From Actinoallomurus spadix (GTDB taxonomy: Bacteria > Actinomycetota > Actinomycetes > Streptosporangiales > Streptosporangiaceae), in assembly GCF_024055725.1 (NCBI RefSeq), contig NZ_JAMXMX010000013.1:1-64000 (forward strand): DNA of 64,000 bases. Direction: 5' to 3'. The notes beneath the pieces are model-generated. The model saw only the letters and a list, made by a program, of their open reading frames with translations. It did not search any database and was not told the origin of the DNA. Positions 25,321-33,134 of the stretch are shown piece by piece (within the stretch, counting starts at the first letter, position 1; every line of letters begins with the position of its first letter). The translations under genes were made by a program, and so were the position numbers.

Positions 25321-25370
25321 ATATCGTCCGCGTATCGAGAATTGCATACGTGCTGACAACACGGCGCTGT
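25321..25370 (+). promoter_or_regulatory. Probable VanR operator / vanH promoter region
   Basis: The block begins ATATCGTCCGCGTATCGA and ends CAACACGGCGCTG, 20 to 63 bp before the vanH ATG. A closely similar block lies upstream of the vanR remnant at 31114-31165. Such a pair fits the known autoregulation of vanR and activation of vanH by VanR-P in Streptomyces. It contains CGTAT-N10-ATACG as partial dyad symmetry. Assignment to VanR is inferred from this sharing. Confidence 0.6.
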
Positions 25371-25383
25371 CTTGACTTGAGAC

Positions 25384-26436
25384 ATGCCCTCCAGCGAATT
25401 GGGTCTGATTCACAGCGAAGCGACCACGGGCCGTCGCGCCCGGACGATGGCCGAGCCATCTTCCTCGTCAATCCCGACGACAGGAATCGCGGTCTTCGGA
25501 TGCGGCCAGGAAGAAGCCGCCTTGTTCCAGGAGATGGGGGCGCGCCTCGGCTTGTCGCTCACCATCACCGAGGCCGCCGTCTGCGAGACCAACGCTGAAC
25601 TGGCACGTGGCAACCGATGCATCAGCGTGAACCACAAGACTCAGATCACCGAACCCGCGCTTCTGGCACTCAGCGAAGCAGGCGTGGAATACATCTCCAC
25701 CAGAAGCATCGGCTATAACCACATCGACCTGGAGTACGCCGAGCGCGTCGGCATCTCGGTCGGTAACGTCGCCTACTCACCGGGCAGCGTGGCCGACTAC
25801 ACGTTGATGTTGATGCTGATGGCCGTGCGCCACGCGAAATCCACCATCCGCCGCACCGATTCTCATGACTATCGACTGAATGAGACCCGCGGTAAGGAGC
25901 TGCGGGACCTGACCGTGGGCGTGGTCGGAACGGGGCGAATCGGCACAGCGGTCATCGACCGGCTGCGAGGCTTCGGGTGCCGTGTGCTAGCCCACGGCAG
26001 GCCGTCTCACGTCAGCGCCGACCACGTACCTCTGGACGAATTGATCGAGCAGAGCGACATCGTCACGCTCCATACCCCGCTCACTGCGGACACGCGCCAT
26101 CTCCTCGATCGCCGACGCATCGAGCGAATGAAACCTGGCGCGTACGTCGTCAACACAGGTCGCGGACCGCTGCTCGATACCGAGGCTCTCCTGTCGGCGT
26201 TGGAGAGCGGCCGTCTGGGCGGCGCGGCACTGGACGTCCTCGAAGGCGAGGAAGGCATCTTCTACGCCGACTGCCGAAACAGGAATCTCCAGAACGAGGC
26301 CCTGGTGCGGCTGCAGCGCCTGCCGAATGTGCTGATCAGTCCGCACTCCGCCTTTGACACCGACCACGCCCTGAAAGACATCGTCGAGAACAGTCTTATC
26401 AACTGCCTGAACTTCGAGAGTGGGAGAACAGCATGA
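25384..26436 (+). CDS. vanH: D-lactate dehydrogenase VanH
   Basis: VanH reduces pyruvate to D-lactate, which VanA uses to make D-Ala-D-Lac precursors that bind vancomycin poorly. The 350-residue protein has a 2-hydroxyacid dehydrogenase fold: NADH site VVGTGRIGTAVIDRL (about residues 180-194), catalytic Arg in VVNTGRGPL and His in SPHSAFDTDHAL. The stretch AYSPGSVADYTLMLMLMAVR and the C-terminal half closely resemble actinomycete VanH. The first about 30 residues are poorly conserved, and ATG 25447 is an alternative start. It overlaps vanA by 4 bp (ATGA). The DNA is less GC-rich than the flanks. Confidence 0.95.
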   Translation: MPSSELGLIHSEATTGRRARTMAEPSSSSIPTTGIAVFGCGQEEAALFQEMGARLGLSLTITEAAVCETNAELARGNRCISVNHKTQITEPALLALSEAGVEYISTRSIGYNHIDLEYAERVGISVGNVAYSPGSVADYTLMLMLMAVRHAKSTIRRTDSHDYRLNETRGKELRDLTVGVVGTGRIGTAVIDRLRGFGCRVLAHGRPSHVSADHVPLDELIEQSDIVTLHTPLTADTRHLLDRRRIERMKPGAYVVNTGRGPLLDTEALLSALESGRLGGAALDVLEGEEGIFYADCRNRNLQNEALVRLQRLPNVLISPHSAFDTDHALKDIVENSLINCLNFESGRTA

Positions 26437-27473
26437 GCAGATTGAAGGTCGGAGTCATCTTCGGAGGCGCCTCCGAGGAACATCCCGTCTCCATCAAGTC
26501 AGCGCGCGAGGTCGCGAGGAACCTCGACACCGAGAAGTACGAGCCGTTCTGGATCGGCATCACGGCCGACGGCGATTGGAAACTGTGCGACGGCCCCGCC
26601 ACGGACTGGGAGAACGGCAGTGCCCGTCCCGTCACGCTGTCACCTGACCGCAGCGTGCACGGTCTGCTGGTCATGGGCCAGGAGGGCTACGAGACGGTGC
26701 GCCTCGACCTCGTCTTCCCCGTGCTTCACGGCAAGCTCGGCGAAGACGGTGCGATCCAAGGCCTGTTGGAGCTCTCCGGCATCCCCTACGTCGGCTGCGA
26801 CATCCAGGGCTCGGCCGTGTGCATGGACAAGTCCCTGGCCTACACCGTCGCCAAGAGCGCAGGAATCGCCACGCCGAACTTCTGGGTCGTCGCGGAGAAC
26901 GAGAAGGTCGACCCCGACCGCCTCCCTTATCCCGTCTTCGTGAAGCCGGCCCGTTCCGGTTCATCGTTCGGCGTCAGCAAAGTCACCGACGAAGACGAGT
27001 TGACGAGCGCGCTGAGCGCCGCGTACCAGTACGACTCAAAGGCCTTGATCGAGGAGGCCGTGGCCGGCAGTGAGATCGGTTGCGCGGTGCTCGAAGAACG
27101 ATCCGGCCTGGTCACCGGCGAGGTGGATCGCGTCGACCTCTCGCACGGATTCTTCAGAATCCACCAGGAGGACTCCCCCGAGACCGGATCGGAGAACTCG
27201 ACGTTCGTCGTTCCCGCCGACATCTCCGACGAATCGCGCCGACTCGTCCAAGAGACCGCCAAGACCATCTACCGCGCCCTGGGCTGCAAGGGACTCGCCC
27301 GCGTCGACATGTTCCTCACCGACGACGGACAGGTGGTGCTCAACGAGGTCAACACCATGCCCGGCATGACGTCCTACAGCCGCTACCCGCGGATGATGGC
27401 CGCCGCGGGATTGTCGCTGTCCGACGTGATCGACCGGCTCATCTCGACGACACTGCACGGGAAAAAGCGATGA
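26433..27473 (+). CDS. vanA: D-alanine-(R)-lactate ligase VanA
   Basis: VanA joins D-Ala to D-Lac. The 346-residue ATP-grasp protein has the N-terminal loop IFGGASEEHPVSIKSA, an ATP site around FVKPARSGSSFGVSKV (about 169-184) and the metal/phosphate-binding VLNEVNTMPGMTSYSRYP at the C-terminus. The omega-loop His that distinguishes depsipeptide ligases from D-Ala-D-Ala ligases is present as FRIHQ, at residue 244, the same number as in enterococcal VanA. The start ATG overlaps the vanH stop and its own stop overlaps vanX, so the three proteins are translationally coupled. Confidence 0.97.
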   Translation: MSRLKVGVIFGGASEEHPVSIKSAREVARNLDTEKYEPFWIGITADGDWKLCDGPATDWENGSARPVTLSPDRSVHGLLVMGQEGYETVRLDLVFPVLHGKLGEDGAIQGLLELSGIPYVGCDIQGSAVCMDKSLAYTVAKSAGIATPNFWVVAENEKVDPDRLPYPVFVKPARSGSSFGVSKVTDEDELTSALSAAYQYDSKALIEEAVAGSEIGCAVLEERSGLVTGEVDRVDLSHGFFRIHQEDSPETGSENSTFVVPADISDESRRLVQETAKTIYRALGCKGLARVDMFLTDDGQVVLNEVNTMPGMTSYSRYPRMMAAAGLSLSDVIDRLISTTLHGKKR

Positions 27474-28078
27474 ACGACGACTTCGTCCACATCGACGACT
27501 GGGTGCCGGGCGTCCGCTGGGATGCCAAGTACGCCACTTGGGACAACTTCACCGGCAAACCGGTCGACGGCTATCTCGCGAATCGTATCGTCGGCACCCG
27601 GTCCCTGTGCGCGGCCCTGGAGCAAGCGCGCGAGAAGGCAGCCTCCCTTGGCTTCGGGCTGCTTCTCTGGGACGGGTATCGCCCCCAACGCGCCGTCGAC
27701 TGCTTCCTACGCTGGTCAGAACAGCCCGAGGATGGCCGGACCAAACTGCGACATTACCCGAACATCGACCGGGCGGAGATGTTCAAGAAGGGATATGTGG
27801 CCGCGAAATCGGGCCACAGCAGGGGCAGCGCCGTCGACCTGACCCTCTATCACCTTGCCACCGGTGAGCTCGTCCCCATGGGTGGCGGCCATGACCTCAT
27901 GGACCCGATCTCACGGCATCAAGCTAGCGAAATCACGTCAACCGAGGCGCAGAACCGTGAGCACCTCCGTTCCATCATGGAGGACTGCGGATTCGATCCG
28001 TACGACCGCGAATGGTGGCACTACACGCTAAGGAACGAGCCCCATCCTGATGTCTACTTCGACTTTCCCATCACGTGA
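27470..28078 (+). CDS. vanX: D-Ala-D-Ala dipeptidase VanX
   Basis: VanX is a cytosolic zinc dipeptidase that removes D-Ala-D-Ala so that only D-Ala-D-Lac enters the wall. The 202-residue protein has all known active-site residues at the enterococcal numbers: Arg71 (DGYRPQ), zinc ligands His116 and Asp123 (SGHSRGSAVD), catalytic base Glu181 and zinc ligand His184 (REWWHY). ATG 27470 overlaps the vanA stop (ATGA). Its end overlaps the following C39-like gene by 29 bp. Confidence 0.97.
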   Translation: MNDDFVHIDDWVPGVRWDAKYATWDNFTGKPVDGYLANRIVGTRSLCAALEQAREKAASLGFGLLLWDGYRPQRAVDCFLRWSEQPEDGRTKLRHYPNIDRAEMFKKGYVAAKSGHSRGSAVDLTLYHLATGELVPMGGGHDLMDPISRHQASEITSTEAQNREHLRSIMEDCGFDPYDREWWHYTLRNEPHPDVYFDFPIT

Positions 28079-28721
28079 TCAGGGTCTCCATTGTATCTCG
28101 CAGTGGGGACATCTGGAACGCAACGATGAGGTCGTCATGCGGCGAACCGGCCTATCGGGGCTGGAGGTCTTCCTGGGTGGCACCGATCCATCGCGACTGC
28201 ACGACTGGGCCTCCGACGGATACCGCTCAAGCGAGGAATACCTATTCTGGTCCCGCAAGGTCTGCGGTCTAGCGTGCCTACAGTCCCTGCTGCAGGGCTG
28301 GACCGACATCCGGCTGCCGATGGGTGAACTCCTCGCGCTGGCCCTCGACTGGGGCTGCTATGTGGTGGAGCCCTCCGGCAGGGTCCAAGGACTCATCTAC
28401 CGGCCGTTCATGGCCTGGGTCAGCTCACAGTTCGGATTCCACTGCGAACTGGTCGAGCACACGCCCATTCATGTATCCAGCCAGAAGGTGCGGCCCGGGC
28501 AGGTCATGATCGCGTCAGTATCACCTGAGATTCGCGACCCGAACACCCACGCGCCCCAACGTGGCGGCCACCTCGTGCTGGTCTATGCGGTCGATGACGG
28601 TGTAGTGCGGTTCCATAATCCGTCGGGCTACTCCCACAATTCAGACTCTGCGTCATTGCCCATGCAGGTATTCGAACGGTTTCACGCGAACCGCGGAATT
28701 CTGATCAGGAGGACTTCGTGA
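28050..28721 (+). CDS. C39-like cysteine peptidase family protein
   Basis: This 223-residue protein resembles actinomycete C39-like (papain-fold) proteins. After HCISQWG it has the active-site Cys in KVCGLACLQSLL (Cys72), a central block LIYRPFMAWVSS, and the His motif RGGHLVLVYA followed by FHNPSGY (catalytic His then Asn/Asp). No signal peptide or membrane segment is visible, so it would act in the cytoplasm, perhaps on a peptide or precursor. The ATG lies 29 bp inside vanX, and its stop overlaps the next start in TGATG, so it belongs to the van operon. Its role in resistance is unknown. Confidence 0.8.
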   Translation: MSTSTFPSRDQGLHCISQWGHLERNDEVVMRRTGLSGLEVFLGGTDPSRLHDWASDGYRSSEEYLFWSRKVCGLACLQSLLQGWTDIRLPMGELLALALDWGCYVVEPSGRVQGLIYRPFMAWVSSQFGFHCELVEHTPIHVSSQKVRPGQVMIASVSPEIRDPNTHAPQRGGHLVLVYAVDDGVVRFHNPSGYSHNSDSASLPMQVFERFHANRGILIRRTS

Positions 28722-29851
28722 TGCCAGGCGAGCCGCCACCGCGCGTCGTTGTCGCGGGTGGCCATTCGGCAGGGCACATCGAGCCCGCGATGAACTTCGC
28801 GGACGCCCTGCGCCGTCTGGAGCCCACGGCCGAGATCACCGCCCTCGGCACCGTCCGTGGCCTGGATACCACGCTCATTCCCGCCCGCGGCTACCCGCTC
28901 GAACTCATCCCGCCGGCGCCACTGCCGCGCAAACTGAACCGGGCCCTGCTGCAAACGCCGGGCAGGCTGCGTGACTCGGTGCGGGCCGCCGAGGCCGTGC
29001 TCGACCGCGTCCGGGCCGAGATCGTGGTGGGCTTCGGCGGCTACGTGGCCATGCCGGCCTACCTTGCCGCCCACCGGCAGGGCCTGCCGATCGTCATCCA
29101 CGAGGCGAACGCCCGGCCCGGAGTGGCCAACCGGCTGGCGGCCCGGATGACGACGCACGTGTTCAGCGCCGCGCCAGGTGTCCGGCTGGCTCACGCCACC
29201 GCCATCGGGATTCCGCTGCGGCCGGCGATCACCGGGCTCGACCGACCCGCGCTGCGCGACACAGCCCGGCGGCGGTTCGGGCTGCGACCCGACGGGCCGG
29301 TACTGATGGTCACCGGCGGTTCGCAGGGCGCCCGGTCGATCAACGCCGCGGTGTCCGGCGCGGCTGCGGCGTTGCGAGCGACCGGCGTGCAGGTGCTGCA
29401 CATCACCGGGCCACAGCACGTGGTCGAAGCGCCACACCACGACTCCGCCGACCCGCCCTACGTCGTCATGCCCTACGTAGACGAGATGCAGTACGCCTAC
29501 GCTGCGGCCGACTTCGTGATCTGTCGCTCGGGAGCGATGACGTGCGCGGAACTGGCCGCCGTCGGCCTGCCGGCCGCGTACGTCCCCCTACCGCTGCGCG
29601 GCGGTGAGCAGCGGCTGAACGCCGAGCCGGTCATCGCGGCCGGTGGGGCGCTGCTCGTCGACGACGCCGACCTCACCCCGACTTGGATCGAGACCACCCT
29701 GCTCCCGGTGCTCACCGATCCCGAGCGGATCGCGGCGATGTCGGCCCACGCGTCGGCGGCCGGCGCACCGGACGCGGGCGTCATCCTGGCCCGGCACGTG
29801 CTCACCGCGGTCGCGGAGCAACGAAGTATCGCCTCGCGAGGCTTGGAGTGA
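28721..29851 (+). CDS. murG: Second MurG-like UDP-GlcNAc:lipid I transferase in the van operon
   Basis: MurG adds GlcNAc to lipid I to make lipid II on the inner face of the membrane. The 376-residue GT-B protein has the first glycine loop AGGHSAGHIEPA, the second FGGYVAMPAYLA, IVIHEANARPGVANRLA, the third GGSQGARSIN and the UDP-GlcNAc site RSGAMTCAELAAVGLPAAY. ATG 28721 is preferred (eight bases behind AGGAGG) over GTG 28718. A dedicated MurG beside vanHAX suggests a version tuned to lipid I ending in D-Ala-D-Lac (inference); the chromosomal division-cluster murG is presumably elsewhere. It converges on vanS, 11 bp away. Confidence 0.93.
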   Translation: MPGEPPPRVVVAGGHSAGHIEPAMNFADALRRLEPTAEITALGTVRGLDTTLIPARGYPLELIPPAPLPRKLNRALLQTPGRLRDSVRAAEAVLDRVRAEIVVGFGGYVAMPAYLAAHRQGLPIVIHEANARPGVANRLAARMTTHVFSAAPGVRLAHATAIGIPLRPAITGLDRPALRDTARRRFGLRPDGPVLMVTGGSQGARSINAAVSGAAAALRATGVQVLHITGPQHVVEAPHHDSADPPYVVMPYVDEMQYAYAAADFVICRSGAMTCAELAAVGLPAAYVPLPLRGGEQRLNAEPVIAAGGALLVDDADLTPTWIETTLLPVLTDPERIAAMSAHASAAGAPDAGVILARHVLTAVAEQRSIASRGLE

Positions 29852-29862
29852 ACTCCCGCTTC

Positions 29863-30969
29863 CTACGAGACCTGCCGAGCTGTCGCGGGTAGTCGTACCG
29901 TGACGCGGAGCCCGCCGTCCGCGCGCGGGGTGAGCGAGAGCGTTCCGTCGTGCGCTTGGGTGATGCTCTTGGCGATCGCCAGACCGAGACCGGCACCTAC
30001 GTGGTCGCTGCGGATGCGTTCGGTGCCGCGCTGGAACGGCTCGGTGAGGGTGGAGACCACGTGCGGGCTGAGCTTGTCGCCGGTGTTCTCTACCGTGAGC
30101 ACGGCCGTCTCGGGACCGGCAACGGCGCTGACGTGAACGGTGCCGTGTTCGGGCAGGTTGTGGACGATCGCGTTGTGCAGGAGATTCGTGGTCAACTGCA
30201 GCAGGAGCGCGTGGGACCCGATGGTCGGGGTGATGTCCCCCGAGGTTTCAATGACGACGCCATGCTTCTCGGCCAGCGGGAGGAGTGTTTCGGTGGCTTC
30301 TTCCGCGATGAGCGACAGATCAACGTCATCTCGGGCGAAGGAGCGCTGGTCAGTGCGGCTGAGTAGGAGCAGTGCCTCAGTGAGGTCGATCGCTCGGGCG
30401 TTGACGACGCGGAGGCGTTCATCGAGCTCGTTGCTTTCCCGGCCCGGATCGTTGCGAGCGACGTCGAGCAAGGCCTGCGTGATCGCAAGTGGAGTACGCA
30501 GCTCGTGGGAAGCGTTGGCTGCGAAGCGCTGCTGTTCGGCGACATGCGCTTCGAGCCGCGCGAGCATGCCGTCGAAGGCGTCAGCGAACTCTCGGAACTC
30601 GTCCTTACGCCCCTCCAACTCGATCCGGTGAGAGAGCGACCCCCTCGCCGCCATGCGCGTGGCATCGGTGATGCGGGCCATCGGGGCCAGCATCCGCCCA
30701 GCCAGAAGCCACCCTCCGGCGAGACCGAACACCAGCAGGAACGCCAGCACCAGTATCGCGGCCGGGACGAAGACGGCGGGGCCGAAATTGCTGCTCGGGT
30801 CGAAGGTGCGTAGGAAGTCCGACAGATCGGGGACGTACAGGCTGTTCGGCCTTCCCCGTAGGAGGAACACCCACACGGCGGCGAGCAGCAGAGCGCCCGC
30901 GATCATGAGGAATCCGACGTAGCTGAGGGTGAGCTTGAGGCGGACGCTCAACCCAGGCGCCCTGTCCAC
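29863..30969 (-). CDS. vanS: Sensor histidine kinase VanS
   Basis: VanS senses glycopeptide and controls VanR phosphorylation. The 368-residue protein has two membrane helices (about 10-37 and 68-88) around a short extracytoplasmic loop, a HAMP domain, the H-box ANASHELRTPLAI with His155, and the N/G boxes NLLHNAIVHN and GAGLGLAIAKS. The text from LSVRLKLTLSYVGF onward closely resembles the Streptomyces VanS. The GTG at 30969 follows GGGAGG by five bases. Because of the vanR deletion, the frame is also open back to the vanR ATG at 31089, so a form with about 40 extra N-terminal residues could be made. Confidence 0.93.
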   Translation of the reverse strand: MDRAPGLSVRLKLTLSYVGFLMIAGALLLAAVWVFLLRGRPNSLYVPDLSDFLRTFDPSSNFGPAVFVPAAILVLAFLLVFGLAGGWLLAGRMLAPMARITDATRMAARGSLSHRIELEGRKDEFREFADAFDGMLARLEAHVAEQQRFAANASHELRTPLAITQALLDVARNDPGRESNELDERLRVVNARAIDLTEALLLLSRTDQRSFARDDVDLSLIAEEATETLLPLAEKHGVVIETSGDITPTIGSHALLLQLTTNLLHNAIVHNLPEHGTVHVSAVAGPETAVLTVENTGDKLSPHVVSTLTEPFQRGTERIRSDHVGAGLGLAIAKSITQAHDGTLSLTPRADGGLRVTVRLPATARQVS

Positions 30970-31089
30970 GTTCGCCTCCCTGGCTCCCGGCGTCCGGTCC
31001 GGTGTCGATGCGGTAGCCGACGGCAGGCGGAGTCCAGCGCGGATGACCGCGGCCATGTAGGCCTCATCCTCGACGACCAGCGCACGCAT
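30970..31089 (-). pseudogene. vanR: vanR remnant: response regulator with internal deletion
   Basis: ATG 31089 begins MRALVVEDEAYMAAVIRAGL, the start of an OmpR-type receiver with its acidic pocket (E-D-E). After about 21 codons the sequence jumps, near 31022-31027, to a different frame that reads VGYRIDTGPD, the very C-terminal end of an OmpR-type winged helix. Roughly 190 of about 230 codons are missing, including the phospho-acceptor Asp, the rest of the receiver and the DNA-binding helices. The N-terminal piece runs in frame into vanS. Only a few hundred bases are lost and both flanks are intact, as expected for a clean deletion or an assembly collapse. Confidence 0.8.
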
Positions 31090-31113: not shown

Positions 31114-31165
31114 ATATCGCCGACGTATCGAAAACCGCCGCGTACAGGCCGGCAACACGGTGCCG
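31114..31165 (-). promoter_or_regulatory. Probable VanR operator / vanR promoter region
   Basis: On the plus strand this block begins ATATCGCCGACGTATCGA and ends CAACACGGTGCCG. It aligns with the vanH upstream block at 25321-25370 with a 3-bp gap. Relative to the gene it serves, it is in the opposite orientation to the vanH copy. It sits 25 to 75 bp upstream of the vanR ATG. Confidence 0.55.

Positions 31166-31547: not shown

Positions 31548-33134
<1,587 letters not shown>

What the first reader, a model, noticed from the sequence alone, without database searches (positions are those of the whole stretch)
30970..31089. vanR internally deleted beside an intact vanS and vanHAX
The first about 21 codons of VanR (MRALVVEDEAY...) are joined to its C-terminal V-G-Y-R-I-D, out of frame, leaving no phospho-acceptor or DNA-binding helices. 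In Streptomyces VanR is required for vanHAX expression, so the cluster should be silent unless another regulator acts. The junction also puts the vanR start in frame with vanS, so a chimeric sensor with a short receiver fragment could be made.
Basis: partly seen in the sequence, partly recalled or inferred. Interest (0 to 1): 0.72.

Follow-up and report, generated by a model that had tools for sequence, protein, structure and literature searches.

The report
Vancomycin sensor parted from its regulator
A soil-type bacterium has lost the regulator gene beside its vancomycin-resistance sensor but keeps a near-identical intact regulator elsewhere in its genome, as several relatives do, which suggests that one regulator serves scattered sensors and that the resistance genes are not simply silent.

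Summary
On the minus strand vanR is cut to its start (ATG 31089, 21 codons) joined out of frame to its V-G-Y-R-I-D end. About 568 nt are missing, and the vanR start reads in frame into an intact vanS (GTG 30969). The inference that the cluster is silent is not supported: the same genome carries a full-length VanR on contig C40, 86% identical to the cis VanR of Actinomadura rifamycini. Of vanHAX-type genomes without an intact neighbouring vanR, 12 of 12 have such a VanR elsewhere, against 1 of 40 with an intact one (Fisher 6e-11; a kinship-corrected test has only 4 pairs, p 0.125). In two of the twelve the only VanS is at the resistance locus and the only VanR elsewhere. The VanR-type operator is kept at the window's vanH promoter and at the former vanR promoter, which now stands before vanS; 24 of 25 vanS genes without an intact vanR that were examined keep it. 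Best reading: a split VanRS system, VanS here acting through VanR in trans. Phosphotransfer and expression are untested. A published survey notes missing or broken partners; my searches found no account of the trans arrangement.

The parts
31115..31130 (-). VanR-type operator (CGATA-N6-CGATA) of the former vanR promoter, now upstream of vanS; a -10-like TACGAT follows at 31102-31097, 7 nt before the ATG
   Evidence: One of two exact matches in the window; the other is at vanH. The same site at 23-27 nt before the start in 105 of 109 distinct vanR promoters, shuffles 181 of 21800; gap here 25 nt
31028..31089 (-). vanR 5' remnant (21 codons), up to the deletion junction at about 31029/31028
30970..31028 (-). 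vanR 3' remnant (V-G-Y-R-I-D in another frame) plus the spacer before vanS, read in frame with vanS; ribosome-binding-like GGGAGG before the GTG
   Evidence: the stop that ends intact vanR inside vanS is absent here (WINDOW frame +2 against L001)
29863..30969 (-). vanS, intact histidine kinase (368 aa); with the leader from 31089 a 408-codon open frame
   Evidence: best NCBIfam match VanS-O, 602.9 bits, below its cut-off of 720; dN/dS 0.17-0.41 among six Actinomadura-group copies without intact vanR
25322..25337 (-). VanR-type operator in the vanH promoter
   Evidence: exact match; a reverse site of at least 8/10 in 52 of 53 distinct vanH promoters, shuffles 249 of 5300
25384..26436 (+). vanH, D-lactate dehydrogenase
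26433..27473 (+). D-alanine--(R)-lactate ligase, VanO-like
   Evidence: NCBIfam D_ala_D_lac 607.6 bits, cut-off 550 met; VanO model 731.3, cut-off 750 not met
27470..28078 (+). vanX, D-Ala-D-Ala dipeptidase (start placed by eye)
   Evidence: NCBIfam dipept_VanX 397.9 bits, cut-off 320 met
28050..28721 (+). orf2 of vanO-type operons, function unknown
   Evidence: no Pfam or NCBIfam match; 79-95% identical in 10 relatives; dN/dS 0.14-0.24
28718..29851 (+). murG-like gene, intact here
   Evidence: TIGR01133 243.2 bits, cut-off 250.25 not met

Best explanation
The locus is the sensor-and-target half of a split VanRS two-component system. A D-Ala-D-Lac resistance cassette came with its own vanR-vanS. 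The recipient already had an almost identical VanR (on C40), so the cassette's vanR was redundant and was removed by an internal deletion. The vanR promoter with its operator and start was kept and now stands before vanS, which can start at its own GTG or be made with a 40-residue leader. VanS is inferred to phosphorylate the C40 VanR on sensing glycopeptide, and that VanR is inferred to bind the kept operators at vanH and vanS. Shown: deletion, intact trans VanR, operators, pattern across genomes. Inferred: order of events, phosphotransfer, binding, induction.
For: (1) An intact VanR with both domains on C40. Its receiver matches the A. rifamycini cis VanR at 104 of 118 positions and its DNA-binding part at 83 of 96; the next own regulator is 61%. 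(2) Trans VanR in 12 of 12 vanHAX-type genomes without an intact neighbouring vanR, in 1 of 40 with one. (3) In 5 of those 12 the trans VanR has no intact vanS beside it; in 2 of them (A. harenae, Lentzea sp. NBRC 102530) the only VanS found is at the resistance locus. (4) Different lesions in 8 of 8 loci mapped. (5) vanS dN/dS 0.17-0.41, vanH 0.21-0.31. (6) Own-genome operator scan: 5 exact sites, two being the window's vanH and ex-vanR promoters and two at C40; 12 sites at up to one mismatch, 2 for the reversed pattern. (7) 24 of 25 examined vanS genes without intact vanR keep the operator. (8) Five of 7 genus mates carry the C40-type VanR at 94-96% and none has the ligase, so VanR looks resident and the cassette acquired. 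(9) Published: Tei3, 67% identical to S. coelicolor VanS, is concluded to phosphorylate S. coelicolor VanR in vivo (PMC9779433, passages).
Against: No expression or phosphotransfer data. The kinship-corrected test has 4 pairs, 4 of 4 in the predicted direction, p 0.125. VanR of S. toyocaensis is reported not to accept a non-cognate kinase, and vanHAX of A. balhimycina is reported independent of its cluster's VanR homologue (PMC7325946, passages). The C40 VanR has its own VanS2 (63% identical to VanS), which could oppose VanS. C40-type vanR promoters mostly have GCATA, not CGATA, in the first half-site. In G279 no vanR-promoter operator was found and in G325 the site is 8/10 with the -10 region deleted. 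Split vanR and vanS also occur at 4 of 27 examined VanR loci of genomes without the ligase, so the cassette alone does not cause splitting.
Confidence: 0.7

Rival explanations
1. Plain decay: vanR was lost by chance and vanHAX is no longer induced; the cassette is on its way out.
For: vanR is heavily eroded in some relatives (L005, G325, G279), and murG matches only in part in several. The losses in the Actinomadura group may be recent.
Against: Chance loss should also hit genomes without a second VanR: 0 of 12. vanS, vanH, ligase, vanX and orf2 are open and under purifying selection. Operators are kept.
Confidence: 0.15
2. Constitutive or other control: vanHAX is expressed without VanR, or another OmpR-type regulator has taken over.
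For: Constitutive vanHAX away from vanRS is proposed for A. balhimycina (PMC9779433, passages). The own genome has many OmpR-type regulators.
Against: The exact VanR-type site is kept at vanH; the next regulator is only 61% identical and has its own kinase.
Confidence: 0.1
3. Assembly or sequencing artefact: the deletion is not in the organism.
For: 71-contig draft; no reads were available.
Against: The junction is inside a 234.6 kb contig, and breaks of the same gene occur in independent assemblies with other end points.
Confidence: 0.05

Closest known systems
VanRS-vanHAX of actinobacteria (S. coelicolor, vanO-type operons)
   Same: vanS close to the VanS-O model; vanH, D-Ala-D-Lac ligase, vanX, orf2 and murG-like gene; convergent vanRS; operator at vanH and vanR promoters
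   Different: vanR is reduced to a stub and the only close VanR of the genome is on another contig
vanRS-like pairs lacking or having impaired one gene, as noted by the 2021 actinobacterial survey (PMC8698665, sections 7 and 15 read, other passages)
   Same: It states that pairs often lacked one gene or had it impaired, and that Actinomadura vanHAX operons carry the vanO orf2
   Different: The parts I saw do not connect the loss with a VanR elsewhere, with the kept promoter or with the stub
A. balhimycina vanHAX away from VnlRS (PMC7325946 and PMC9779433, passages)
   Same: vanHAX not beside vanRS; VanRS homologues can work across species in S. coelicolor
   Different: There vanHAX is reported independent of the VanR homologue; here vanS stays beside the operon
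Orphan kinases and regulators, branched two-component systems (for example HpaS-VemR, PMC7036368, search listing and abstract start only)
   Same: A kinase acting on a regulator encoded elsewhere
   Different: Here the split arises by loss of one partner of near-identical duplicated pairs, repeatedly

Membership tests
vanO-type D-Ala-D-Lac resistance operon | D-alanine--(R)-lactate ligase | tested here: met
   NF000206.1 607.6 bits, cut-off 550
vanO-type D-Ala-D-Lac resistance operon | VanO-specific ligase model | tested here: not met
   NF000374.1 731.3 bits, cut-off 750; therefore called VanO-like
vanO-type D-Ala-D-Lac resistance operon | vanX dipeptidase | tested here: met
   NF033115.1 397.9 bits, cut-off 320
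vanO-type D-Ala-D-Lac resistance operon | vanH dehydrogenase | tested here: inconclusive
   NF000492.1 533.6 bits, cut-off 540, just missed
VanRS two-component pair in cis | intact vanR beside vanS | tested here: not met
   568 nt missing
VanRS two-component pair in cis | intact VanS kinase | tested here: met
   open frame, H-box and ATPase regions aligned to relatives; VanS-O cut-off itself not reached (602.9 of 720)
Split VanRS (VanS acting on VanR in trans) | close VanR elsewhere in the same genome | tested here: met
   C40, 86% identical to A. rifamycini VanR
Split VanRS (VanS acting on VanR in trans) | VanR-type operator at the target promoters | tested here: met
   25322-25337 and 31115-31130 exact
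Split VanRS (VanS acting on VanR in trans) | phosphotransfer from VanS to the trans VanR | not testable with these tools
   needs biochemistry

The most novel reading that the evidence does not exclude
One highly conserved VanR is a genome-wide hub in the Actinomadura group: incoming or duplicated VanS sensors plug into it and shed their own vanR, while the vanR promoter, operator and start codon are kept as a leader that feeds vanS translation by fusion or by start/stop overlap. Glycopeptide-resistance operons would thus be wired into a resident regulator, with sensors, regulator and resistance genes at up to three separate places (G324).
Probability: 0.5. Interest if true: 0.75.

Novelty: new variant of a known kind. 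Interest (0 to 1): 0.64.

Why it matters
vanHAX clusters are often judged inducible or silent by whether vanRS lies beside them. If VanR in trans serves VanS here, a missing vanR is no evidence of a silent or constitutive cluster. The repeated losses are a natural experiment on how near-identical duplicated two-component systems settle: one regulator kept, sensors multiplied. Genomes in which the only VanS and the only VanR lie apart (A. harenae, Lentzea sp. NBRC 102530) make this directly testable.

Tried and rejected
Considered and rejected: that the genome has no other VanR (searches show one). That only this strain has the lesion. That orphan VanR arises only in ligase-bearing genomes (4 of 27 VanR loci without the ligase are also unpaired). 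A kinship-corrected test of the cis/trans association is too small to be significant (4 pairs, p 0.125). The fifth exact operator match in the own genome (C6:74727) lies at the beginning of or inside a reading frame and was not interpreted. A guess that orf2 is a C39-like peptidase found no support: no family match and a poor model, mean pLDDT 47.5.

Left out of counts: of 47 vanHAX-bearing loci among the 80, L065 was dropped because its vanR runs off the contig. The 80 loci are the best 80 of 93. Genomes reached twice under two handles were counted once. L040 (Solirubrobacter) has no vanHAX near and is not in the 12/40 comparison.

Full report
Observation. On the minus strand the ATG at 31089 starts MRALVVEDEAYMAAVIRAGLR, then the sequence jumps to the V-G-Y-R-I-D end of VanR in another frame. 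Against the intact vanR of Actinomadura rifamycini this is one deletion, nt 62-629. The ATG is in frame with the vanS GTG at 30969, 120 nt on. The stop that ends intact vanR just inside vanS in A. rifamycini is absent here. VanS and the genes vanH, ligase, vanX, orf2 and murG are open.

A second VanR. The window lies in an 8.02 Mb, 71-contig genome. Contig C40 holds an intact VanR (224 aa, receiver and DNA-binding domains) beside a second VanS (63% identical to the window's). With A. rifamycini VanR as query the C40 copy is 86% identical and the next regulator 61%. In the same genus, 5 of 7 other genomes carry this VanR at 94-96% and 0 of 7 the ligase at E <= 1e-140. So the C40 pair looks resident and the resistance cassette acquired; this is inference.

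Pattern across genomes. One search gave 80 loci (best of 93) with a VanS relative; 47 carry the ligase beside it. Leaving out L065 (contig end), 46 of these genomes plus L040 were searched for VanR. A search of 341 family genomes found the ligase in 16 and VanR at E <= 1e-95 in 151, of which 5 show two matches. Combining both without double counting, and leaving out G382 and G386 for contig ends: genomes with the operon and no intact neighbouring vanR have a trans VanR in 12 of 12; genomes with an intact one in 1 of 40 (Fisher 6e-11). Kinship inflates this. On a VanS tree only 4 independent pairs remain, 4 of 4 in the predicted direction, p 0.125. The lesions have different end points in 8 of 8 loci mapped, which argues for separate losses.

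Split pairs. Of the 12 trans VanR loci, 5 have no intact vanS beside VanR: G288, G331, G279, G324, and G044, where vanS pieces remain. In a sixth, G325, vanS2 matches in two pieces in different frames. In G288 (A. harenae) and G044 (Lentzea sp. NBRC 102530) the only VanS at E <= 1e-75 is the one at the resistance operon. In G324 resistance genes, VanR and VanS lie on three contigs. Splitting is not confined to ligase bearers: 4 of 27 examined VanR loci from genomes without the ligase have no vanS beside them, and each of those genomes has one VanS elsewhere. All 27 VanR-bearing genomes have a VanS; the 2 without VanS (G052, G053) also lack VanR. 22 of the 29 genomes were chosen because they bear VanR.

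Operator and leader. A direct repeat CGATA-N6-CGATA occurs exactly twice in the window: in the vanH promoter (25322-25337) and the former vanR promoter (31115-31130) (at two mismatches the window has no more matches than shuffles, 27 against a mean of 23). Related sites stand 23-27 nt before vanR in 105 of 109 distinct promoters (shuffles 181 of 21800), and in reverse near vanH in 52 of 53 (shuffles 249 of 5300). In the whole genome the pattern ATAYGNNGNCGATAT has 5 exact matches: these two, two at C40 (vanR and the divergent gene), and one in C6 at a reading frame. C40-type vanR promoters mostly differ in the first half-site, GCATA for CGATA. Of 25 examined vanS genes without an intact vanR, 24 keep a site of at least 8/10 upstream; G279 does not, and in G325 the -10 region is deleted.

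In 18 of the 25, where vanR is reduced to a short stub or gone, the stub is in frame with vanS in 5 (window, L206, L209, L211, L216), the vanS start itself stands at the vanR start's place in 3 (L059, L075, L220), and the stub's stop overlaps the vanS start in 9 (six at +5, three at +1). In L217 the stub ends 26 nt before the assumed start, where an in-frame ATG overlaps the stop. For L216 the script took an ATG 4 nt too early and I re-read it by eye. The other 7 keep longer vanR pieces and were not scored for frame. The 7-nt distance from a -10-like TACGAT to the ATG suggests leaderless transcription, common in actinobacteria (recalled, not tested). The kept start would then be needed to translate vanS, or at least tolerated.

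Selection. vanS dN/dS is 0.17-0.41 among six copies without intact vanR; vanH, ligase, vanX and orf2 give 0.14-0.31. Part of this divergence may predate the loss of vanR.

Partner compatibility. The window VanS and C40 VanS2 share 52 of 70 residues in the phosphotransfer helices, against 32 of 70 for the C55 kinase; C40 VanR and A. rifamycini VanR share 104 of 118 receiver residues. In print, Tei3 (67% identical to S. coelicolor VanS) is concluded to phosphorylate S. coelicolor VanR, and VanS of S. toyocaensis to act on S. coelicolor VanR but not the reverse (PMC9779433, passages). Against: VanR of S. toyocaensis accepts no non-cognate kinase, and vanHAX of A. balhimycina is independent of its VanR homologue (PMC7325946, passages).

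Literature. PMC8698665 (sections 7 and 15 read, other passages; [quoted passage not shown] The words 'in trans', 'cross-talk' and 'crosstalk' have no match in it. PMC11273654 was seen in passages only. Searches listed no paper that, by title or abstract start, describes VanS with VanR in trans. The library holds open-licence papers only, and two key papers are not held.

Verdict. Observation confirmed; 'silent' not supported; the best reading is a split VanRS with VanR in trans, not yet shown by experiment.

Noticed in passing
window 28050-28721: orf2 of vanO-type operons: 79-95% identical in 10 relatives, strongly conserved (dN/dS 0.14-0.24), no Pfam or NCBIfam match; predicted structure of low confidence.
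   Followed up: partly
L001-L004, L006, L079 (murG region): The murG-like gene of the cassette matches only in part, or weakly, in several relatives, while it is intact in the window, L005, L008 and L080.
   Followed up: no
L220 (G022:C7, Solirubrobacter soli), 4522 onwards: A vanS whose start codon stands where vanR's start would be, 24 nt after the operator, with no vanHAX found nearby.
   Followed up: partly
L208 2735-3769: An orphan vanS in A. syzygii (G331) follows a reading frame that looks like a D-Ala-D-Ala ligase (by eye), perhaps another VanR target.
   Followed up: no
L185 7150-8178 (G000:C40): A TPR protein gene divergent from the C40 vanR has its own exact operator copy (C40:8238): a likely member of the VanR regulon.
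   Followed up: partly
window 31557-33134: A secreted protein gene with weak matches to cellulase-type models lies next to the vanR promoter, on the other strand.
   Followed up: no
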